A stretch of DNA of 64,000 nt. Origin: an uncultured Poribacteria bacterium. GTDB taxonomy: Bacteria; Poribacteria; WGA-4E; WGA-3G. The notes below the pieces were generated by a model. The model saw nothing but the letters and a program-made list of their open reading frames with translations, was not told where the DNA came from and ran no database searches. The position numbers and the translations under genes were made by a program. Every line of letters begins with the position of its first letter. Positions within the stretch are counted from its first letter, which is position 1. This document shows positions 42,730 through 54,198 of the stretch, in pieces. The stretch spans positions 4,145,200-4,209,199 of the forward strand of contig OX639973.1 of assembly GCA_951828385.1 (NCBI GenBank), in the 5' to 3' direction.

Positions 42730-43299
42730 TCAGGGTGCCAGATTAATCAACTTACGAAAATAAATCGTAGGACTCCGTGAGATTTTCAGAAAAAGGTCAG
42801 GACGATTGTGCAATTCGCCCGGGGAATGAAAAGGTTGTGTTCTTCGCCTGCTCCTGTTAAAGTTAAGGTCTGTGATACTTACAAACCGATATTGATAATC
42901 ATCAAGAAATTCTTCCAATTCCCAAAATGACTTTCCTATACATCTGCAATAACTTACAAAACAGGATGCTCCTTTTAGTTGTTGAATAACATGTGATGCC
43001 AGTTTAGAGTCCATTTCTTGTGTCTCAATACAGATAATCCACTTTTTTCCGCGCTCGTCGTTGGATACGATCACAAAGTCAGCTCGCTTGCGTTCGCCTC
43101 TTGATCCATTAAAGATAGTAAGCGGATTCTCAAAATCTTCAGCTCGGATAACAATAGAGTTATGAGGTAACCCTTTTATTTCCACAGTTGTACCAGATTG
43201 CGAATCCGTTAATTGAACGGAAGGTCTACCCTGTCTTGATTGTAACATAACTTGAGCATCAGGATTGAGCATTTCCTGTAATATCTGTATATCATTCAC
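42730..43299 (-). CDS. Small protein of the defence-like block, possible PD-(D/E)xK-type fold
   Basis: A GTG at 43299 with AAGAG upstream avoids overlap with the ATPase gene. A GTG at 43320 would extend it by seven residues and overlap by 16 bases. The middle reads GERKRADFVIVSNDERGKKWIICIETQEM then HVIQQLKGASCFVSYC. The spacing of Asp, then Glu-x-Gln, resembles a PD-(D/E)xK nuclease core with Gln in place of the usual Lys, followed by a QQLKG helix. This is a weak match and catalysis is not proven. It is the last gene of the block, directly behind the ATPase gene, the arrangement of two-gene ATPase/effector systems. Confidence 0.5.
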   Translation of the reverse strand: MNDIQILQEMLNPDAQVMLQSRQGRPSVQLTDSQSGTTVEIKGLPHNSIVIRAEDFENPLTIFNGSRGERKRADFVIVSNDERGKKWIICIETQEMDSKLASHVIQQLKGASCFVSYCRCIGKSFWELEEFLDDYQYRFVSITDLNFNRSRRRTQPFHSPGELHNRPDLFLKISRSPTIYFRKLINLAP

Positions 43300-43304
43300 G
43301 AGAC

Positions 43305-44696
43305 TTACTCTTCTCCCCACACAATGTCATCCTGAATCCTGTTCATGTCATCAATCGTATTGTCAAAGCTGCTGACCCCGATGCCGAACTCGGAATGGAC
43401 CTTAGCCTTTACGAGTGTGTGCCCCCTTCTTCGTCTCTTTTGTCCTTCTTCTAATGGCAGTAATGCTTTTTCCGCCACATATACTTTGACTTGATCGGCA
43501 TGAATCAACTCACTGTCACGATAGCCATTTTCCTCGGCTATTCTTTTCAAGTGTGGCTTATCGTGGTTGAGCATGATAAGCGTATTCAATTCCTTAATAA
43601 TGTAATCGCTGTGGGTGGTTACAAAGACTTTAACGCCTATATTCGCGAGTCGTGCAAAGAGTCTGGCGATGCGGCGTTGGTTTTCTGGATGCAGGCTTAA
43701 CTCCGGTTCGTCTACCATAAGCAAATCGCCTTTTTCAGCGACGTGACGCAGATAAAAACCGATGTCCAAGAGTGAACGGACAGCACTTGAACTTTGGTCC
43801 ATCGTCAGTTTTAACTTCGTGCCTTTGGGGCTATAGTAGAGTTGATCGTTTTGTGTAATAGTATATTTACCACCAATAATGTCTGCGAAATCGTCCAAGA
43901 CTTCAGGGTATTCTTTGGCGATGAAACTTTTACTTTTGGCGATATCTTCAAAACCTCGAGCAAAGTCAACATTGTCTTCTACCGGCGAAGGGTAAGTTTG
44001 GTGGACTTTGAATAATAATTCTAGCGGATCAATTTTTTGGCCCGCTCGCCCCATTTCCTCAACCAGTCGGTTCCGAGCAAAATCGAGTTCCCTCCGAAAA
44101 ATCGCGACACCAGTGCGCTCAGCTGAAGATATAAATGGTTTGGGCAGAGAATCAGAAAAAATAACGTCGGTAATAATGCTCTCAACAACCATTCTTGCAA
44201 AGTGGGAGTCAATTTTTCTTTCTTCTTTTTCAATCCCTATAGTAACTGTTAGCACCTCACTGCCCTTGTGCTTTGAATACTCGAAATTTCCTCTTTGAGG
44301 AGGTTCAATCCTTTGATTGATTTCTTTGTCACGAATATCGTTTTCACTTGTATGAAGGTGAAATTCGCTAGACTGAAACATACCCTCAGGTGCTGCAAAA
44401 ATTTGATCCAATCGCTCAACATAGTCTTCGCATGCTTCTGCAAGCATCTGATTTACCTTTCTGACATATTGCGCCAGATCAATCTTAAGGGCACCATCTG
44501 TAAGCAAACTACGGGGTTGGCGACGATCAATCGGAATGTTAATTAATTTACGCCAAGACTTTAAGAAACCGTACAGCGCATAGGTGGCATAGGTTTTGCC
44601 GGTGTTGTTTTCACCACAAATAAGCGTCAAATCGCCGAGCGAAAATTCTGCCTGCTTCAAAATTCCGATGTTTTTTAAGCGTACTGTCAAACTCAT
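43305..44696 (-). CDS. SMC/ABC-type AAA ATPase of the defence-like block
   Basis: The 463-residue protein starts MSLTVRLKNIGILKQAEFSLGDLTLI, with Walker A GENNTGKT near residues 28-35. The region about 60-270 is an insertion with a helical pattern, as in OLD and RloA-like ATPases. The degenerate signature SSSAVRSLLDIGFYLR leads to Walker B LLMVDEPELSLHPENQ (Asp329, Glu330) and a switch His in VTTHSDYI. The carboxy end is basic (GQKRRRRGHT) and may touch nucleic acid. No Toprim domain is attached. It is coupled to the small gene downstream, and its start overlaps the stop of the Mod-tail remnant. Confidence 0.85.
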   Translation of the reverse strand: MSLTVRLKNIGILKQAEFSLGDLTLICGENNTGKTYATYALYGFLKSWRKLINIPIDRRQPRSLLTDGALKIDLAQYVRKVNQMLAEACEDYVERLDQIFAAPEGMFQSSEFHLHTSENDIRDKEINQRIEPPQRGNFEYSKHKGSEVLTVTIGIEKEERKIDSHFARMVVESIITDVIFSDSLPKPFISSAERTGVAIFRRELDFARNRLVEEMGRAGQKIDPLELLFKVHQTYPSPVEDNVDFARGFEDIAKSKSFIAKEYPEVLDDFADIIGGKYTITQNDQLYYSPKGTKLKLTMDQSSSAVRSLLDIGFYLRHVAEKGDLLMVDEPELSLHPENQRRIARLFARLANIGVKVFVTTHSDYIIKELNTLIMLNHDKPHLKRIAEENGYRDSELIHADQVKVYVAEKALLPLEEGQKRRRRGHTLVKAKVHSEFGIGVSSFDNTIDDMNRIQDDIVWGEE

Positions 44697-44743
44697 AATG
44701 ATACCTCTACAATTGTCGTTATGTCATCGTCATCATCGCCCAT
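44693..44743 (-). pseudogene. Remnant of a methyltransferase (Mod) carboxy terminus
   Basis: A 17-codon frame reads MGDDDDDITTIVEVSL and stops in a TGA that overlaps the ATG of the ATPase gene. Its end matches the last residues of the Mod protein at 46730 (GNDTMTIVEVLV). The DNA is also shared: ACAATTGTAGAGGT is identical in both places, and both are followed within ten bases by the start of an ATPase gene. It looks like a scar left when other genes were inserted behind mod, or by duplication of the junction. Confidence 0.6.
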
Positions 44744-44770
44744 GGTTTCTCGGACTGCTTGGTTGAATCT

Positions 44771-45082
44771 CTAAGGATCTTTGAAATACAATTTGGCATT
44801 ATCAACAACGCGCTTTAACAACGCAAGATCGTTTTGCTCTACATCCTCAACTTTCAACAAGTCTCGGATGTGCTTTTCGTTGAAGGTTCCATATAATTGA
44901 CCAATAGAGGCGTTTAGGAAAGCCGCTGTCAGTGTTGTGACGTTGCGAAATGAGAGCAAGATATCTCGATCTGCTTTAAGCGCAGCTGCAAGTCGTTGAT
45001 AAACTTTCTGTCCATCACTGGAAGTGACGCACAAAGGACTCCCCACGACTTCAAATATGGATATTCTAATATATTTTCGCAC
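44771..45082 (-). CDS. STAS-like domain protein (DUF4325)
   Basis: The GTG start at 45082 follows AAGGA. The 103-residue product matches DUF4325: GSPLCVTSSDGQKVYQRLAAALKADRDILLSFRNVTTLTAAFLNASIGQLYGTF, then DLLKVEDVEQNDLALLKRVVDNAKLYF. This is a small alpha/beta domain related to STAS, used for protein-protein contact. It is encoded between the two ATPase genes, so it probably regulates one of them. It has no catalytic motif of its own. Confidence 0.75.
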   Translation of the reverse strand: MRKYIRISIFEVVGSPLCVTSSDGQKVYQRLAAALKADRDILLSFRNVTTLTAAFLNASIGQLYGTFNEKHIRDLLKVEDVEQNDLALLKRVVDNAKLYFKDP

Positions 45083-45194: not shown

Positions 45195-46733
45195 TTAAGT
45201 CCCAAAAATATCTTTTTCCAATTCTTGATAAACAGTCATATCTTCACTGAACAAAGGAGCAAGCACATCAGACAGAAATTCTTCTCTATCGTCTCCAACG
45301 ATCAATCCGTATCCCTTACTAATTTTTTGATATATTTGTCCGCTCTTTGCTTTAGCATCGTTTCCGGTAATGCCTTTTAATTCTTGCAATTGGCACGCAT
45401 CTAAACCGTTCTCATCAGCGAATTTTTTCAGCACTTCGTCATCAATAAGATAATCTTCTATACGGCGGTGAGTCAAAACACGGATTCCTTCTTGGATGAG
45501 TTCATCACGTTTTTCATCAAGCAAACCATTGCGATCTCGTACAACGAAGATTTCTGCTTTTTGTATGACATCCTGAAGTACAGGAATGATTTTATTTAAT
45601 TCCGATTTGCCTCCGGCTGAAACAAACAAAGCGTCAGGATAACTTTTAGCGAAAATCTTATTGTAGCAACGGGCATCAAAAGCTGCACTATTTGGATCTG
45701 ATTCGCAAACAATAATTTTCTCTGGTGCCAACAAGCCGGAAAGATCCTCTAAAACGCTCTGATGGAGCTTTTGCCAAAGTTCACGGTCCGGTCTTGTAAT
45801 CGGTTCTATGTTGACTTCCTTGTCAAAATTGCGATCAGAGAGATCCAAGTAGACTACTTCTCCCGGATTTTCCTCTAAGATTTTTTTTGATGCCCGTAAA
45901 ATTCCAATGGAGTGTGTGCCAAGCCAAAGTTGTGACTTCTCAGGAATCAAGTCATACAAAATCTTGAGTAATTCGCTTTGGGCACTCAACCCCATATGTG
46001 CTTCCGGTTCGTCAATACACATTGCTGCATTCGGGTAATATTCTCTCCTGACGATAAAATCAAGAAGCAAATCAAAAGCTGCTTTCTCGCCTCCTGATAG
46101 ATTGACGTAATTATACTTTTTAGCCTCTCCTTTTTCAAAATAGAAAGTACCTTTACCCTCGGGATCTTCCAAAGAATGCAATCTCAAGTCAGGAAAGACA
46201 GATTGTAAGGAATCACGAACCTGACCTATAACCTGTTCCCTAATCTCCACATTATCGCGAACTTGACTGTCAAAGACTTTTTCCATTATCTGTCCATATA
46301 TTCTTTGATAATTTCTTTGAACTTCAGCATCGGATGTGGAAAAATTACGCCCTGCGCTGCGTCCATATTCGCTCTCATCAATTTTTTCCACCGTAGAAAC
46401 ACTAAATTTTGAAGTATGCCGATACGCCGAGCGCATATAACAAGCTTCTCCCAAATTTGAAGGAGGATCATCAGCCTCAATAGTTACGCCGAGACTGCTA
46501 AAGCGCGGGTTTGAACGAGAAGCTGCAGGCTGTCCGTCTTTCTGATGGTATTCAGGATCGTACCTAACAAAATTGTGATCTTTTCCCCAGGCATTAATGG
46601 CCTCAAACAAGGATGATTTTCCGCTTCCACTGGGACCAACTAAAATAACAAGTTTCGCTGTGTCCGGAATATCTTCAATTATTAGGTTAGTAAATCGCTT
46701 ATAACCTTCCAAACGTATGGATCTGATTCTCAC
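45195..46733 (-). CDS. AAA ATPase fused to a Toprim-like (DUF4435-like) domain
   Basis: The start is a GTG that overlaps the mod stop as GTGA, with AGAGG upstream, so translation is coupled. The 512-residue protein has Walker A GPSGSGKSS (33-41), a central helical part, signature LSGGEKAAFDLL (212-223), Walker B MCIDEPEAHM (238-247) and a switch His in LGTHSIGIL. From about 338 a second domain reads KIIVCESDPNSAAFDARCYNKIF, FVSAGGKSELNKI, EIFVVRDRNG and RRIEDYLIDDEVL. It keeps the Toprim Glu (344) and Asp (400), but D-R-N replaces DxD. ATPase plus DUF4435-like Toprim is the composition of the PARIS defence system (AriA and AriB), here in one chain. OLD nucleases are another relative. Confidence 0.8.
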   Translation of the reverse strand: MRIRSIRLEGYKRFTNLIIEDIPDTAKLVILVGPSGSGKSSLFEAINAWGKDHNFVRYDPEYHQKDGQPAASRSNPRFSSLGVTIEADDPPSNLGEACYMRSAYRHTSKFSVSTVEKIDESEYGRSAGRNFSTSDAEVQRNYQRIYGQIMEKVFDSQVRDNVEIREQVIGQVRDSLQSVFPDLRLHSLEDPEGKGTFYFEKGEAKKYNYVNLSGGEKAAFDLLLDFIVRREYYPNAAMCIDEPEAHMGLSAQSELLKILYDLIPEKSQLWLGTHSIGILRASKKILEENPGEVVYLDLSDRNFDKEVNIEPITRPDRELWQKLHQSVLEDLSGLLAPEKIIVCESDPNSAAFDARCYNKIFAKSYPDALFVSAGGKSELNKIIPVLQDVIQKAEIFVVRDRNGLLDEKRDELIQEGIRVLTHRRIEDYLIDDEVLKKFADENGLDACQLQELKGITGNDAKAKSGQIYQKISKGYGLIVGDDREEFLSDVLAPLFSEDMTVYQELEKDIFGT

Positions 46734-48850
46734 ACCAACACCTCTACAATTGTCATTGTATCATTGCCAAAAATATCTACTACTTTGATAGCGAGTTTGC
46801 GGGGGCCGGGTTCGCATTCGTGGGCGACGCTGGTTAGTTCTAACGAGCGGTCTTTCTTGGTACGGAAACTTTGCCACTCATTTTCAAAAACATAGTCGCC
46901 TGTCCACTGTTCTTCCCACTCGCCTGTTTGTGAATCTTGCATGCGGATAATTTCTTGTTTGCTCTCAAAGTCGAAATCGACTGACCAGTAATCAATCCAG
47001 TCTGTCCAGTGTTTGGTTAGCATCTCGCGACTCACAATTCCATCTGCGTCTTTGCTGACCTTTGCGACCTGCCCCTTCTCCACGACGATTCGACTGCTCC
47101 TGTTTTTGAGTGTCTGCTCAGCGTGGGAGATGGAATCCTGTGAGTAAAAGACAGAAAAATCGGTTAACTCTACTGCGATGGTTGTGGGTTTGTGTCTCTC
47201 TCCTGCTGTGATGTGCGGTTTGACTTCAATAAACGCCATGTCGTGGAACACCACCTGTCCTTGCTCTACTGCGCGTTTGTCGAAAACTTCAGCAGGGATG
47301 AATTTGGGTGCGATATTGATGCCTTTGCTTTTTGCTTCATCCAGCACATTGGGAAACAGTCCCATCTCAAACTCAAAACCGAGAACGTCCACGCGCGTGA
47401 TCTGATGCCTACGACATTCAAGGATAATTTCTTCGACGAACAGACGCGTCACCGGCAGGTTAACGGGACCGACTGCGACAAGTCTTCCTGCTTTTTTACC
47501 CTGAAAATTGGTGAAACTGTCTGTTTTCTCGGCAGCGTAAGCGCGCAAGATGAGATCAGTAAACGCTTTTTCCCTCTCTACCGATTGCTTCTGCTGTTCA
47601 GCCTGACGTAGGTTCGGATTGACACCGATGTAGTGCTGCCGTTCGTATTTGCCGAGGTTAAGGATTTCAAAGGCGCGGTAGTTTTCGCCATTCGCTTTTA
47701 GTTGACGCTGTACGCCTATCATCCGCTTGCGTGTGGTATGGATGGCAAACTTGCCGAGGTCTGTGGCAATCCATTTGCGTCCCAGTTTTTCGGCAACGGC
47801 AGCAGTGGTACCGGAACCGCAGAAGAAGTCAGCGACGAGATCGCCTTCGTTTGAAGAAGCTTTAATGATACGCTCAAGAAGAGTTTCCGGTTTTTGGGTG
47901 GGGTAACCGAGAATCTCACCTCCAATATTCAACATAGGAATTCGCCAAACACTATTCACAAGTTTATCAACTACTTCAACATACAGAATCTTGCCATCTT
48001 GATTTCGCACAACGTCCGCTTTTTTAGTGGTAGAATTAAATTTTCGCATGGGTTGCCGTTTAACTTTACCGTCATCAAACGGCTCACGCTGCTCGTTCCA
48101 AACAAAATTATTGCTTTTAATGAAATGAAAAAGCACATCATGCACTTGATGGAATTTTTTTGATTTTGCCTTTAATCCAGAGTTTGGATAGAACCATATA
48201 ATTTCGTTACGAAAATTCCCAAAAATCTCATCTAACACCGATCTGATATAATTATTAACCCGCCAATCACAATGCACGTAGATGCTCCCGTCGTCTGCAA
48301 GTAAATCTCGCATTAGGATCAAACGCTCGTAAATCATGGCTAAAAACGAATCCGCCCCTCTGCCCCAGGTGTCGCGATAGGCGATCTCTTCAAGGATATT
48401 GGGATCTTTAGTAAAGACTTCCTCACCAATCTCAATATTCATAGAAAAATCCGCACCTACGTCAAAGGGTGGATCGATATAGATGAGTTTGAGTCCGCCT
48501 TGTGCTTCTATCTCGTCGCGCAGGGGCCCGTTCTTGAGGGATGACAAGACCAATTTGTTGTCGCCCCAGATAAGTTTGTTTGTCCAACCCTTGCGTTGAC
48601 GACCGCGTGTATCAAATAAACCGAGTTGCATATTGTCTTCAGAGGGTTTTTCGGCGCGGGGTTCGTCTACCTGCTCGATTGTCTGAAATGGCAGGACGAT
48701 GTTACAGACTTCGTTGGTTTTTCCGTTCCAGACGAGTTCTACCTCGCGTTTGTCTTCAAACAGAAGAAAGCGGTATTTGTCGGGCAACGGTTTGTCTGCC
48801 TCAATGAAGCGGATGATTTCTTGTTGTTCTTGTTCGGTGAGTCTTGGCAT
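46730..48850 (-). CDS. mod: DNA N6-adenine methyltransferase, type III-like Mod
   Basis: The 706-residue protein is a beta-class amino-methyltransferase: catalytic motif IV (DPPF, KLIYIDPPFDVGADF, near 126-129) precedes SAM motif I (VADFFCGSGTTAAVAEKLGRKW), the order typical of Mod subunits. An amino-terminal LFEDKREVELVWNGKT segment and the long carboxy half (VLGFEFEMGLFPNV, EVKPHITAG) are usual in Mod proteins paired with Res helicases. It would set the recognition sequence, and with Res it forms a restriction-modification pair. In contrast to common type III operons, Res is not next to it: three other genes and a repeat cluster lie between. Confidence 0.9.
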   Translation of the reverse strand: MPRLTEQEQQEIIRFIEADKPLPDKYRFLLFEDKREVELVWNGKTNEVCNIVLPFQTIEQVDEPRAEKPSEDNMQLGLFDTRGRQRKGWTNKLIWGDNKLVLSSLKNGPLRDEIEAQGGLKLIYIDPPFDVGADFSMNIEIGEEVFTKDPNILEEIAYRDTWGRGADSFLAMIYERLILMRDLLADDGSIYVHCDWRVNNYIRSVLDEIFGNFRNEIIWFYPNSGLKAKSKKFHQVHDVLFHFIKSNNFVWNEQREPFDDGKVKRQPMRKFNSTTKKADVVRNQDGKILYVEVVDKLVNSVWRIPMLNIGGEILGYPTQKPETLLERIIKASSNEGDLVADFFCGSGTTAAVAEKLGRKWIATDLGKFAIHTTRKRMIGVQRQLKANGENYRAFEILNLGKYERQHYIGVNPNLRQAEQQKQSVEREKAFTDLILRAYAAEKTDSFTNFQGKKAGRLVAVGPVNLPVTRLFVEEIILECRRHQITRVDVLGFEFEMGLFPNVLDEAKSKGINIAPKFIPAEVFDKRAVEQGQVVFHDMAFIEVKPHITAGERHKPTTIAVELTDFSVFYSQDSISHAEQTLKNRSSRIVVEKGQVAKVSKDADGIVSREMLTKHWTDWIDYWSVDFDFESKQEIIRMQDSQTGEWEEQWTGDYVFENEWQSFRTKKDRSLELTSVAHECEPGPRKLAIKVVDIFGNDTMTIVEVLV

Positions 48851-48858
48851 AGGCTGTC

Positions 48859-49383
48859 TTATCCTTCACTATTTTTTCTTAGGGCTGCCTGCTTTGTTTT
48901 GTTTGCTTCAAGGGCTTGCACTGCCGGATCGCTGATCTTGTCTGCTCCGTCTACTTCAAGGACCTGCACAACAGGATCACCTGTTTGAACTGAACTGTTA
49001 TCCTCATCAAGCATATCAGGAGTGTCGCCTGATTTTTTCAATGACTCATACTTTGTCACCCAATTGGGTGGCATAAGAGCTCGAGCGATCGGTCCATATC
49101 CCAGAGCGGGATATAAAGCAACTCCCCCGATATTAATTTGTTTTGATCTGTATGTAGATGCCACAGCCAATCTATCTTGAACATAGGTGATCTTCACTCT
49201 GACTCTTGGACGTTCAATAGAACCTAACACTTCATCTGTATCCGGATCTTTTATATCTTGCCCTTGAGCATCCATCACATCAAAATACATACCAACATCT
49301 ACGCCGTGTGCTGTTCCGATGTTTATTGCTATTTCCCGCTCGTTAAGCACGCGTGCGACTTTTCCGCGAATAGGTTCAGTCAT
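48859..49383 (-). CDS. FlgT_C-like small protein
   Basis: The ATG at 49383 overlaps the stop of the previous gene (ATGACTGA) and follows GGGGGACAACA. A longer frame to 49413 is less likely. The 174-residue product starts GKVARVLNEREIAINIGTAHGVDVGMYFDVM, then IKDPDTDEVLGSIERPRVRVKITYVQDRLAVAST, which is the pattern of the FlgT carboxy-terminal domain family, a small beta barrel. No signal peptide is seen, so the flagellar role of FlgT does not apply. The remaining 90 residues are low in pattern. It is translationally linked to the membrane protein and precedes mod by nine bases. Confidence 0.65.
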   Translation of the reverse strand: MTEPIRGKVARVLNEREIAINIGTAHGVDVGMYFDVMDAQGQDIKDPDTDEVLGSIERPRVRVKITYVQDRLAVASTYRSKQINIGGVALYPALGYGPIARALMPPNWVTKYESLKKSGDTPDMLDEDNSSVQTGDPVVQVLEVDGADKISDPAVQALEANKTKQAALRKNSEG

Positions 49384-49945
49384 TGTTGTCCCCCAATGTC
49401 TGGTCAGGTACAAGTGTCTGTATCAAATTTTGTAACTCTTCAGATGTTATGGTTTCTTCTCGGAGTTTTTGTATCAAATCTTCCAATTCTTCTTTGAGGA
49501 TGTCACGCCAATTTTCAATTGCATCATCTGCGGTAGCCAACTGTTCGCCAAAGATACCTAAAAGATATGCACGGATAATGTTGTAATTCTCACGTGATTC
49601 AAAATTCTGCGATGATTCGGTTACCGCGGCTGCACGAGTAACGCTTTTATATAAAGATACAAGGTAGCGGACAGCATTCCGCGCGTGTGGTTTGAGAATT
49701 TCATCTCTTGCCTTTTCAACTGACTGTTTCCCAACCCAATACGAAACACCGCACCCGATTGATAAAAAAATGAATTGCAATAAGACATTTTCCATGCTGC
49801 TCAAATCTCGTATTGCTGCAATGATCACGAAAACAACCGTCGATCCAAAGACAATTAAACCGATTAAACCTGGCCAAATCCATTGCGATTTTTTTTGTTT
49901 GTCGTAATTATTTTTTTGTTTTTCCAATTTAATGCCTCTTATCAA
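49376..49945 (-). CDS. Two-helix membrane protein of the defence-like block
   Basis: The 189-residue product has a basic start (LEKQKNNYDKQKKSQ), helix one (WIWPGLIGLIVFGSTVVFVIIAAI) and helix two (VLLQFIFLSIGCGVSYWVG). About 120 cytoplasmic residues are helical and end in a Glu-rich coiled coil (DILKEELEDLIQKLREETITSEELQNL). No family was recognised. Between a ParA-like gene and the FlgT_C-like gene, it may serve as a membrane anchor or effector of a defence complex. The function is inferred only from place. Confidence 0.6.
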   Translation of the reverse strand: MIRGIKLEKQKNNYDKQKKSQWIWPGLIGLIVFGSTVVFVIIAAIRDLSSMENVLLQFIFLSIGCGVSYWVGKQSVEKARDEILKPHARNAVRYLVSLYKSVTRAAAVTESSQNFESRENYNIIRAYLLGIFGEQLATADDAIENWRDILKEELEDLIQKLREETITSEELQNLIQTLVPDQTLGDNND

Positions 49946-49977
49946 ATATCGATCATGACTAATGACACAAGAAACCT

Positions 49978-51003
49978 CTAAAGATACGCCACAAAATTGG
50001 CAAGTGCATCCTGAAACTGCCTCAATGCCTCGGGCTCAAGTTGGACTTGCCTACCTCGAAACTTATTGAGTCCGGGTTGAAGGCGATATAAGGGGATTCC
50101 TGTTGTTATCATCATACATGCACTGTGATAATCAGGTATTTCTATGAACCTCTCGCTCGGTAATGCTCTTGGGGTTGCATAGACTTGACGGTGTTTTTTG
50201 TGAAGAACATCCAAAGTTTTCTTGATAGATACACTCACAGCCTCGAAAGCCTTGCTTGCCTTGTCTTCATGGAGCATGATACGGTTACTGACGAAAGTGT
50301 GAAGTTTCGGAATTGCGAGTCCCTCTTCTTTCGCCCTTTTGGCAAAGTTGAGTCGGGCGTAAGTTTCCATTTTTGGGTTACCCATACCGTTGCCATAGAG
50401 CAGCGCGATGACATTCTCCACAGCCCGACGTGAACCATCATCAGAGGTAAAAGGCACGACAACGTTCTCTGCGGCAGCGAGTGCCAGTTGGGTATAGATA
50501 GCAAAACTCGGACTACAGTCAATGATAAAAATCATATCTCTGTTTCCACTCCGCTGACGCAAGGCAACGGTCAAGTCTTTGATCCAACCAAGTACCTGTT
50601 TCCACGCGTCTTCTGGAAGATCAAACTGAGATGTCTGGCGAATTGCTCCTGAGAGAATTTCCAGCAGATTATCACCAGACACTAAAAGCAAATTGACCGG
50701 AAGTTTTGCATTAAAGTCCCGAGGACGACACACGTAGGAGGACACATCCTTGAGGGGCCGGAAAGGTGAATTTAGGCGTGCTTCAAGGTAACCTGCAACT
50801 GTAGCACGGGGTGTTTGCCCTATCAGTTTATGAATCACATCCGGATTAGAGAGCAAAGTTTCAGAGATGTTCGCTTGTGGGCAGAGGTCTATAACATACA
50901 CATCTGTGTCTGGATAAGTACGGGCATATTCGGTTGCTGCAACAAAGCTTAAGAAACTCTTGCCAACCCCTCCTTTATTGTTCCAGAACGCGTAAGCTGT
51001 CAT
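49978..51003 (-). CDS. ParA/MinD-like P-loop ATPase
   Basis: The 341-residue protein starts MTAYAFWNNKGGVGKSFLSF, with the deviant Walker A KGGVGKS (10-16) that defines the ParA/MinD group. DVYVIDLCPQANISE is the A' motif and MIFIIDCSPSFAIY the Walker B. LLYGNGMGNPKMET and the FVSNRIMLHEDKA segment are less usual. AGGGGAGTTGCATT precedes the ATG. No ParB gene or parS-like site is next to it, so it is probably not for chromosome partition. It lies between Res and Mod. Confidence 0.85.
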   Translation of the reverse strand: MTAYAFWNNKGGVGKSFLSFVAATEYARTYPDTDVYVIDLCPQANISETLLSNPDVIHKLIGQTPRATVAGYLEARLNSPFRPLKDVSSYVCRPRDFNAKLPVNLLLVSGDNLLEILSGAIRQTSQFDLPEDAWKQVLGWIKDLTVALRQRSGNRDMIFIIDCSPSFAIYTQLALAAAENVVVPFTSDDGSRRAVENVIALLYGNGMGNPKMETYARLNFAKRAKEEGLAIPKLHTFVSNRIMLHEDKASKAFEAVSVSIKKTLDVLHKKHRQVYATPRALPSERFIEIPDYHSACMMITTGIPLYRLQPGLNKFRGRQVQLEPEALRQFQDALANFVAYL

Positions 51004-51423: not shown

Positions 51424-54198
51424 TCAGGTCTTGTATTCCGTGAAGCCGTCAAGCAGTTGCTGAAATGTTTGCGGTTTATACACATCAAAACTCTCTTGAT
51501 CCACATAGACAAAATCATAGGTAACATCTGTTGCGATTCTGTTGACATCTTCACACCATTGGGATAAGCGTTGCATCTTGAGAGGGACATCCAGATCTTC
51601 TCTGCCTTTGGTCTCGACGACAATCACACGTCCATCTGTCAACTTGACAAGGAAATCGGGATAGTAGTTGCTGATGTCGCCATCGGCGTTGATATAGTCG
51701 AGTTTGAAGGACACCCCGGGATAGTTTTTAGTATAAGAGACCACATCGGGGCAGTTTTCGAGGAATGCAGCAAACTCTAATTCAAAATGGCTATCGCCAG
51801 TGATTCTGTTGAATACAGATTTTTGGGGAATCAGGGACTCCTGCTCTTTAACCATAAAGGGACGTGCGTCCTGGGCTCGCGTTGTCTCGCTCAACTCTGC
51901 TTCTTCTCTGTCTTGTATCGTGAGGTCGTTGATGGCGTACTTGAAGGTTTCCATGACGGTTTTTGTGGCAGGGAGTTCCGACAGATTTTGTAGGGTATTC
52001 GGATCCTCTAACATCACCGTTTCACCGAAAAGTTGGTGTTGGACGAAGTCTTTCACCTTTCCATACAAGACATCGTAGCCGCTGACAAGCCGCAAGTCCT
52101 TACGGATCGTTTCGGCAAAATAGCCGACCACGCTGCGGTAATCTGCGACTCCGTTACTATCCATCACCGTGGTGTGTGTGACCTCGCCTGTCGTCATGTC
52201 CTTAAACACAATTTCCCGTATTTCCGCTTCGCCAAACGCCTGATAGGTTACAGGAGAAAAATCGAGGTGTGTAACGTCCAAGTCTGTTAGGTTCGTGTAC
52301 TCGCGGTAGATGCGGCGTGTGAGTATCGGGATTTCAATATCAAGTGCGTCAATATCTTTGTTCACATTGGTTTTATCCACTTCAATGACGATGGGTGCTT
52401 TCGGTTTCGTGCCTTCGCCCATGGGTTGGCGTTCCAACTCGACCCCTTCCGATTTAATGGATTCAACAAATTCCATGAACTCTTTAGTGCCGATAACGCT
52501 CACTGTCTCCTCCGCTGTACCGGCGTACATCAGACGTAGCCCGCGCCCCAAAGTCTGCTCCGGTAAGATATTGGGTTTAGCCGAATACGCGCGCAGCCCG
52601 ACAATAGTCGTTACATTCTTGACATCCCATCCTTCTTTGAGCATCAGGACGGAGACGATAGCCTTATATGGACTGTCCAGTGAATCAATGTCATTTGCCT
52701 GTTTACGGAGTTTCTCCAATTCTGCTTGCTTCTTGCTGGATTTCGCTTCAGAGATTTCACCACTTTTGTTGGTATGAATCACCAATACGGCATCTTTGAG
52801 AGCAGGATGCAGGTTTTCGAGGGACGCTGCCACCTCGTCGCAGTTCTGGGTATTGTCGGTCATTACAAACAAGATGGCTTTCTTCCCTAATTTTTCGTGT
52901 TCTGCATAAGCTTTACGCCACTCCACAACACCGAGCTCAAGATAGTCGGCGTATTTTTCAGTGTATTTTACACTCTGCCGTTCAACAAGTTTTGCCCGGC
53001 TCTCAGCATCAGGGAGGACAGGGTGTTTGACGACATTTTGTGAAATCGCCTCTACGAGGGGATAATCCGAGACTGTTTGCGCGAAAATTGCACCGTTGCT
53101 ATGTTTGGGGGTGGCGGTTACGTCTACTTGCAACGCCAACTCACTGCCTTTCTGCAGGAGGCGGTTATGAATATCCTCAATAGACTTGAACCACGCCAGT
53201 TTGGGATCGTGGACGTGATGTGCCTCATCGTTAAGGATCATCAGTTCGTCAATGTCGCGGACAATGTCTCCGAGGTCTACTTTAGAATCTGTTGTTGCCC
53301 CCGTCGGTTTATTCCCCAAGAAGTAGTCCATACTATTTTCATCATCGGGTGCTGGTGGAGATTGATCACTGGAATAGACGCGGTGGATATTGGTGAGAAA
53401 GATATTGCCGGTGGGACGGACGGTACGTACCTCGTCTTGGACATGCAAGGTGAGTTGAAAATCGTTTCGCCAATCGTGACCCTCAAAACCGTTATCGGGT
53501 AGCACCGGATCTTCAAAGAAAATGCGTAATCCTTGAAAATCGTGGTAGAGACGGTCAAGCACAATGATATTAGGGGCAATGACGAGGAAGTTCCGCGAGA
53601 GTTCAGAATCAGATTCATACAACTTATGAAAGAAACTCCACGCGATGGCGAGGCTCATCACCTTTGTTTTTCCTGTGCCAGTCGCCATCTTTATCACAAA
53701 TCGTCGCCAATTTTCGTCAAACATATTTGCCGAGACAGCACCGGAACTGTCAAAACGCATCAGATCGAATTCATCCCTTACCTTGACGACATCGTATAGG
53801 TAGATAATGGTTTCGATTGCCTCACGTTGCGCGAAGTAATACTGAAACTCGCTCACCGTGTTGTCAGACTGTTCTTGTAGGTGCCGAGTATTGAACCACC
53901 AATTGAGGAGTGCTTTGCTTGTTTCGGAAGCACCGCTGTAGTTGTCATCTCGCCACGTCTTGACTTGCTCACGAATCTTTTGCACGAGTGGCGGGAGTAG
54001 CATTCCGTAGTCCAAATCGAACAGCAGTGATTGATCTGGAAGCCAACGCACCGAAGGATCAATGATTTCGTGTGGAGATTCAGGGAAGTCGGGGTGTAAA
54101 GCCATGATTGCCGGTTCTGCTTCTAATGCTTCATCAAGTTTGAACTTAAGGGTAGGTTCGTAGTCGTGCGATTTTGCGGCGTACTCGCCCAAATGCAA
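51424..54198 (-). CDS. res: Type III-like restriction helicase-endonuclease (Res)
   Basis: The 924-residue protein carries Walker A MATGTGKTKV (near 172-178), a DEAH-type box in MILNDEAHHVHD, motif III-like DVTATPKH, and later helicase parts YKAIVSVLMLKEGWDVKNVTTIVGLR and EQTLGRGLRLM. Near the end NYYPDFLVKLTDGRVIVVETKG gives the PD...ExK endonuclease site. This is the full set of a Res subunit that cuts DNA with ATP-driven motion. The TTG start at 54198 has no good ribosome site, and the palindrome at 54209-54245 lies immediately in front, so the true amino end may be altered. Partner Mod lies about 2.6 kb downstream of its stop. Confidence 0.88.
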   Translation of the reverse strand: MHLGEYAAKSHDYEPTLKFKLDEALEAEPAIMALHPDFPESPHEIIDPSVRWLPDQSLLFDLDYGMLLPPLVQKIREQVKTWRDDNYSGASETSKALLNWWFNTRHLQEQSDNTVSEFQYYFAQREAIETIIYLYDVVKVRDEFDLMRFDSSGAVSANMFDENWRRFVIKMATGTGKTKVMSLAIAWSFFHKLYESDSELSRNFLVIAPNIIVLDRLYHDFQGLRIFFEDPVLPDNGFEGHDWRNDFQLTLHVQDEVRTVRPTGNIFLTNIHRVYSSDQSPPAPDDENSMDYFLGNKPTGATTDSKVDLGDIVRDIDELMILNDEAHHVHDPKLAWFKSIEDIHNRLLQKGSELALQVDVTATPKHSNGAIFAQTVSDYPLVEAISQNVVKHPVLPDAESRAKLVERQSVKYTEKYADYLELGVVEWRKAYAEHEKLGKKAILFVMTDNTQNCDEVAASLENLHPALKDAVLVIHTNKSGEISEAKSSKKQAELEKLRKQANDIDSLDSPYKAIVSVLMLKEGWDVKNVTTIVGLRAYSAKPNILPEQTLGRGLRLMYAGTAEETVSVIGTKEFMEFVESIKSEGVELERQPMGEGTKPKAPIVIEVDKTNVNKDIDALDIEIPILTRRIYREYTNLTDLDVTHLDFSPVTYQAFGEAEIREIVFKDMTTGEVTHTTVMDSNGVADYRSVVGYFAETIRKDLRLVSGYDVLYGKVKDFVQHQLFGETVMLEDPNTLQNLSELPATKTVMETFKYAINDLTIQDREEAELSETTRAQDARPFMVKEQESLIPQKSVFNRITGDSHFELEFAAFLENCPDVVSYTKNYPGVSFKLDYINADGDISNYYPDFLVKLTDGRVIVVETKGREDLDVPLKMQRLSQWCEDVNRIATDVTYDFVYVDQESFDVYKPQTFQQLLDGFTEYKT

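What the first reader, a model, noticed from the sequence alone, without database searches (positions are those of the whole stretch)
44693..44743. Scar of a mod 3' end before the second ATPase gene
The frame MGDDDDDITTIVEVSL ends exactly like Mod (GNDTMTIVEVLV), shares ACAATTGTAGAGGT at the DNA level, and overlaps the next ATPase start as the real mod end does. The simplest reading is that mod was once followed directly by the ATPase/small-protein pair, and the ATPase-Toprim and STAS-like genes entered at this junction while duplicating the mod tail. This would be a trace of module exchange at a fixed site behind mod.
Basis: seen in the sequence. Interest (0 to 1): 0.62.

Follow-up and report, generated by a model that had tools for sequence, protein, structure and literature searches.

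The report
Severed STAS tail joined to mod relic
The short frame is the cut-off end of the STAS-like gene next to it, joined to about 30 bases left over from the methyltransferase gene mod; relatives show that defence genes have repeatedly been exchanged in the slot behind mod and left such remnants.

Summary
The frame is real, overlaps the ATPase start by ATGA, and shares 15 identical bases in register with the mod end. Of 69,598 possible start codons in Poribacteria loci, 31 match the window's mod end as well; on inspection all are gene starts abutting a mod end or starts of this ATPase or of one HATPase gene.
The frame is not purely a mod tail. It continues the STAS-like (DUF4325) ORF in phase past a TAG...YFKDP*RFNQAVRETMGDDDDDITTIVEVSL. 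Homologues read Q/E/K there, and two relatives carry the intact fusion. So a CAG-to-TAG change severed the STAS C-terminus, and only the last ~9 codons, holding the ATPase's Shine-Dalgarno, are mod-like.
That part is a true mod relic. A model of genuine mod ends finds decayed mod tails abutting this ATPase in most relatives (best E 3e-8). One relative has a (deleted) mod running directly into the ATPase. Others carry OLD, HATPase-STAS-PIN or STAS between mod and ATPase.
Verdict: reader partly right. There is module exchange behind mod with mod-tail scars, but this frame is STAS plus scar. The recombination mechanism is inferred.

The parts
44771..45082 (-). STAS-like (DUF4325) gene, first 103 codons, ending in an in-frame TAG (44773-44771) where homologues have Q, E or K codons
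   Evidence: Pfam DUF4325 E 3.3e-13; homologues read through this position
44723..44770 (-). severed C-terminal codons of the STAS-like protein (RFNQAVRETMGDDDDD)
   Evidence: in-phase translation; own-genome paralogue ...YFKDPQRFNQIFQEVLGDNDDEG*; intact fusions in L049 and L139
44695..44728 (-). relic of the 3' end of mod (codes ITTIVEVSL in the STAS frame)
   Evidence: mod-tail profile hit at model positions 118-151; 15-nt run and 19/25 identity in register
44703..44707 (-). GAGGT, likely Shine-Dalgarno of the ATPase, lying inside the relic
   Evidence: sequence; role inferred
46730..48850 (-). mod (type III-like DNA methyltransferase); its last 152 nt (46731-46882) are the source type of the relic
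   Evidence: PF01555 5.9e-45; PADLOC MTase_III 1.5e-114
45195..46733 (-). ATPase-Toprim-like (OLD/AriA-like) cargo gene, start overlaps mod stop (GTGA)
43305..44696 (-). AAA ATPase, PDC-M47A / PD-T4-4_A-like
   Evidence: PADLOC PDC-M47A 1.9e-206
42730..43320 (-). partner of the ATPase, PDC-M47B
   Evidence: PADLOC PDC-M47B 3.2e-58
51424..54198 (-). restriction helicase (Res) of the same locus
   Evidence: PF04851 1.4e-17; REase_III 2.7e-24

Best explanation
The marked frame is a composite. Its first part is the C-terminus of the STAS-like DUF4325 protein encoded just upstream, cut off in this genome by one CAG-to-TAG change. Its last ~9 codons (about 30 nt) are a relic of the mod 3' end that stayed attached to the front of the PDC-M47A/B ATPase pair and still supplies that ATPase's Shine-Dalgarno and start overlap. 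Inferred history: the ATPase pair once sat directly behind mod; cargo (HATPase-STAS-PIN, or OLD in place of the HATPase) entered between mod and ATPase so that the living mod kept a complete end and the old end remained as a scar before the ATPase; PIN and most of the scar were lost, fusing STAS in frame to the scar; finally the TAG truncated STAS. The likeliest mechanism is homologous or homeologous recombination between mod ends of different loci. Shown: the severed STAS tail, the mod homology, the alternative cargo, and a direct (deleted) mod-ATPase junction. Inferred: the order of events, the Shine-Dalgarno role and the mechanism.
For: In-phase read-through. Own-genome paralogue and most of the Poribacteria homologues continue past the TAG position. 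L049 and L139 carry the intact STAS-relic fusion, L127 a STAS-deleted form with the same junction. A profile built from 19 genuine mod ends only: in 807 kb every sub-genic hit with E<0.1 abuts this ATPase's start except two, and both of those are also relics, L192 behind an OLD gene and L140 before an HATPase. In a small database of leaders, 28 of 36 ATPase leaders match with E<1. The only matches among 383 leaders of long ORFs are genes behind mod, this ATPase, or the gene after the L192 relic. Direct mod-ATPase overlap in L134. Mod tail on both sides of HATPase-STAS-PIN in L118. A second 152-nt mod tail downstream of the intact mod in L142, 133/154 aligned columns identical to its own mod. 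The tail is native to mod: it is present in a 61%-identical mod followed by res, not by the ATPase (L141).
Against: The window's relic alone is not significant (E 1.5). L134's mod is internally deleted, so it could be an excision product rather than the ancestral order. Several ATPase orthologues lack a relic (L186, L190, L125; L129, L119 and L138 keep only a GAGGT-like end). In the ATPase tree the STAS-fusion loci are not one clade, so the junction and the ATPase alleles have been reshuffled or the fusion arose more than once. A sequencing error at the TAG cannot be excluded.
Confidence: 0.82

Rival explanations
1. One reading: the whole 16-codon frame is a duplicated mod tail left when OLD and STAS entered together.
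For: Shared tail and ATGA overlap; mod relics before the ATPase in relatives.
Against: MGDDDDD and the upstream codons align with the STAS C-terminus in homologues; STAS is linked to HATPase/PIN rather than to OLD in many genomes.
Confidence: 0.06
2. Convergence: mod end and ATPase leader resemble each other only because both must carry GAGGT plus an overlapping start codon.
For: The shared word contains a Shine-Dalgarno-like GAGGT; window copy alone scores E 1.5.
Against: Of 1,933 start codons with GAGG, the only ones reaching the same identity are mod-abutting, ATPase or HATPase starts; relics in L126, L114, L121, L132 extend 60-90 nt with frameshifts, well outside any SD.
Confidence: 0.04
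3. Site-specific integration into the 3' end of mod by an integrative element that restores the gene end and leaves the displaced end as an attR-like scar.
For: Geometry fits: complete mod end, cargo, remnant of the old end; cargo starts directly at the mod stop in many loci.
Against: No integrase among the cargo genes typed; relic length varies from about 30 to 122 nt with no constant core.
Confidence: 0.12
4. The ATPase gained its mod-like leader once and carries it as a functional leader when it moves, so the leader at any one locus does not mark a former neighbouring mod at that locus.
For: Relics also precede ATPase copies with no mod found within the fetched flanks (L111, L126, L136) and copies upstream of res (L142, L143).
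Against: In L134 mod and ATPase are physically joined; HATPase cassettes can carry the relic too (L140, L234). Not exclusive with the best explanation.
Confidence: 0.3

Closest known systems
PDC-M47 / PD-T4-4 / WonAB (OLD-type ABC ATPase plus nuclease) defence pairs
   Same: Both genes match PADLOC PDC-M47A and M47B; the ATPase also matches PD-T4-4_A. WonAB is reported as similar to PD-T4-4 (PMC12137116).
   Different: Here the pair lies behind a type III-like mod and carries a mod relic as leader; a distant homologue (L074) sits in another setting.
Defence genes embedded in restriction-modification loci (e.g. prrC in a type IC locus) and defence-island hotspots such as the E. coli ICR
   Same: Accessory defence genes in, or exchanged next to, an RM locus (PMC12707154).
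   Different: Here the slot is the mod 3' end itself and leaves recognisable mod-tail scars.
Integration into gene 3' ends with restoration of the end (e.g. prophage e14 in icd; from general knowledge)
   Same: Resident gene keeps a full end while a duplicate of the end marks the far junction.
   Different: No integrase and no constant core seen; scars are variable and decayed.

Membership tests
PDC-M47 (PD-T4-4-like) defence pair | ATPase component A | tested here: met
   PDC-M47A E 1.9e-206 over residues 4-463
PDC-M47 (PD-T4-4-like) defence pair | adjacent B component | tested here: met
   PDC-M47B E 3.2e-58, genes overlap
PDC-M47 (PD-T4-4-like) defence pair | anti-phage activity | not testable with these tools
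   needs an experiment
Type III restriction-modification | Mod methyltransferase | tested here: met
   MTase_III E 1.5e-114
Type III restriction-modification | Res helicase-nuclease | tested here: inconclusive
   REase_III partial matches E 2.7e-24; NCBIfam BPTD_3080 279 bits, below its cut-off of 800
DUF4325 (STAS-like) | Pfam domain match | tested here: met
   E 3.3e-13, residues 23-85, domain lies before the truncation
Integrase-mediated insertion at a gene 3' end | recombinase encoded by the insert | tested here: not met
   window cargo is OLD plus STAS; cargo typed in other loci are OLD, HATPase, STAS, PIN, Rce1-like
Integrase-mediated insertion at a gene 3' end | constant duplicated core | tested here: not met
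   relics start anywhere from model position 31 to 123 of 152

The most novel reading that the evidence does not exclude
In Poribacteria the 3' end of a type III-like mod gene acts as a recombination hook: defence cassettes enter behind it, carry or leave behind mod tails, and later move to mod-free loci still tagged by the mod relic that serves as their translation leader, so that the tags record past neighbours.
Probability: 0.4. Interest if true: 0.68.

Novelty: new variant of a known kind. Interest (0 to 1): 0.48.

Why it matters
Defence genes gather in islands, but how single cassettes are swapped without a recombinase is seldom visible. Here decayed pieces of one gene end mark former junctions, so the order of gains and losses can be read from sequence and tested across many genomes. 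The case also shows that a tiny mixed frame can be explained by a severed neighbour plus a relic.

Tried and rejected
Idea that the OLD C-terminus (DIFG) is itself a mod relic: rejected in general, since ELxxxIFG is conserved at the end of both OLD types; only L192 shows OLD fused to a mod relic. A 150-nt hand-written consensus found the window junction at E 2.4e-4, but I had ended it with the ATPase-type GTGTCAGTATGA, which favours ATPase leaders, so I rely on the profile of genuine mod ends and on the window's own mod tail. Viral contigs gave one distant ATPase pair (42%), starting 58 nt from the end of the fetched contig, so uninformative for the leader. Literature searches found no description of this slot; only two papers held the word DUF4325. 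One family search failed on wrong coordinates and was repeated.

Full report
What was claimed. The frame, the overlap and the shared word exist. In register, the 25 nt before the ATPase start match the 25 nt before the ATPase-Toprim start (the mod end) at 19 positions, with a 15-nt identical run. I compared the window's mod end with the 25 nt before every ATG/GTG/TTG in about 0.8 Mb of Poribacteria loci (69,598 sites; 1,933 with GAGG at Shine-Dalgarno distance). Thirty-one sites reach 19/25; reading the list, all are starts abutting mod ends, starts of this ATPase, or the start of one HATPase gene.

What the frame is. The STAS-like ORF (45082-44771) ends in TAG and the frame continues it without a shift...VVDNAKLYFKDP*RFNQAVRETMGDDDDDITTIVEVSL*. 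A paralogue in the same genome reads ...VVRDVKLYFKDPQRFNQIFQEVLGDNDDEG*. Homologues from relatives nearly all continue with Q, E or K plus RFNQ-like residues and an acidic end. A few have other breaks: L046 an earlier stop, L005 and L038 changed ends. L049 (Candidatus Poribacteria SB0668_bin_37; its contig starts within STAS) reads ...YFKDPQRFNQVVRKIIDDDDITTIVEVSI* and L139 reads ...CFKDPQRFNQVVREVMGDDDDDTTTIIEVSV*, both overlapping the ATPase start. So the frame is the STAS C-terminus cut off by a nonsense codon. The DUF4325 domain (residues 23-85) lies before the cut.

The mod-like end. Most STAS homologues stop near the acidic stretch and lack ITTIVEVS; it was seen only in loci with STAS next to the ATPase. 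I built a profile from the last 153 nt of 19 mod genes and searched 807 kb. Besides mod genes and long mod tails, hits with E<0.1 abut this ATPase's start (L126 3e-8, L114 3e-7, L121 4e-6, L132 8e-6, L130 3e-5 and others), except L192:5164-5093, where an OLD-type gene behind mod runs into a decayed mod tail, and L140:5127-5166, before an HATPase gene at a site with no mod nearby. The window's own copy scores 7.2 bits (E 1.5) and would not stand alone. Against a small database of 36 ATPase leaders, 28 match with E<1; L129, L119, L138, L112, L186, L190 and L125 have no hit. The only matches among 383 leaders of long ORFs in the same loci are genes behind mod, this ATPase, or the gene after the L192 relic. 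The longer relics are frameshifted relative to mod (L114, L132, L126), as expected of decayed coding sequence. The end is native to mod, as it also occurs in L141, a 61%-identical mod followed by res.

The simpler order and the cargo. In L134 a mod frame with a large in-frame deletion (133 aa, keeping both ends) overlaps the ATPase directly. No intact mod directly before the ATPase was seen among 34 ATPase-bearing genomes of the order. Behind mod the map shows OLD-STAS-ATPase (window, L139 with another OLD type; G014 on two contigs, L093 and L049), OLD-STAS remnant-ATPase (L127), HATPase-STAS-PIN-ATPase (L129, L138, L132, L118), STAS-PIN-ATPase (L114, L119, L124, L182), STAS-ATPase (L121, L130), and OLD2-STAS without the ATPase behind it (L142, L143, L133). 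L118 carries a 92%-identical mod tail before HATPase-STAS-PIN and a decayed one after it. L142 has a second mod tail about 3 kb downstream (133 of 154 aligned columns identical to its own mod end). HATPase genes at mod-free loci L016/L140 and L234 also begin behind mod-like relics, while L036, L042 and L044 do not.

Reading. The slot behind mod exchanges defence-type cassettes and the joints keep pieces of the mod end. The piece before the ATPase contains GAGGT a few bases from the ATG and probably serves as its Shine-Dalgarno (inferred). The most economical history is mod-ATPase, insertion of HATPase-STAS-PIN, replacement of HATPase by OLD, deletion of PIN with most of the scar (fusing STAS to the rest), then the TAG. 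This order is inferred. The ATPase tree does not group the four STAS-fusion loci (window with L127, 97/97; L049 with L119, 100/99), so alleles have been reshuffled or the fusion happened more than once. In keeping with mosaicism, window and L049 are 92-98% identical in SMALL but mostly 72-87% in the ATPase, lower in one stretch. Because relics also precede ATPase copies without a mod in the fetched flanks (L111, L126, L136), the tag may travel with the ATPase; a relic at one site does not prove a former mod at that site.

Known context. The ATPase pair matches PDC-M47A/B and PD-T4-4_A; WonAB is a published relative of PD-T4-4 (PMC12137116). Defence genes within RM loci and in hotspots are known (PMC12707154). 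I found no report of mod-tail scars at such a slot in the library searched. I rate it a new variant of a known kind.

Noticed in passing
window 44771-44773: TAG in the STAS-like gene where homologues have Q, E or K; other STAS copies are broken elsewhere (L046 early stop, L005 and L038 changed ends).
   Followed up: partly
L049:201-2170 versus window 42730-44696: SMALL is 92-98% identical at DNA level but the ATPase mostly 72-87%, with a stretch near 44170-44350 at 45-73%: mosaic.
   Followed up: partly
L142:4398-9054 and L143:11956-16605: In a related family the ATPase pair lies upstream of res instead of behind mod, still with a mod-like leader.
   Followed up: partly
L192:9759-9851: Fragment of a second mod start (residues 1-31) with its own upstream genes beside the intact mod: sign of a tandem or rearranged locus.
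   Followed up: no
L118:211-669: DUF4231/SLATT-type small protein gene directly before a mod tail that has lost the mod body.
   Followed up: no
window 48859-51003: A ParA-like gene and two small genes lie between res and mod, and are kept in many relatives; role unknown.
   Followed up: no
L074:2-2778: Distant ATPase/partner pair followed by a DNA methylase-like gene in another family of the class.
   Followed up: no
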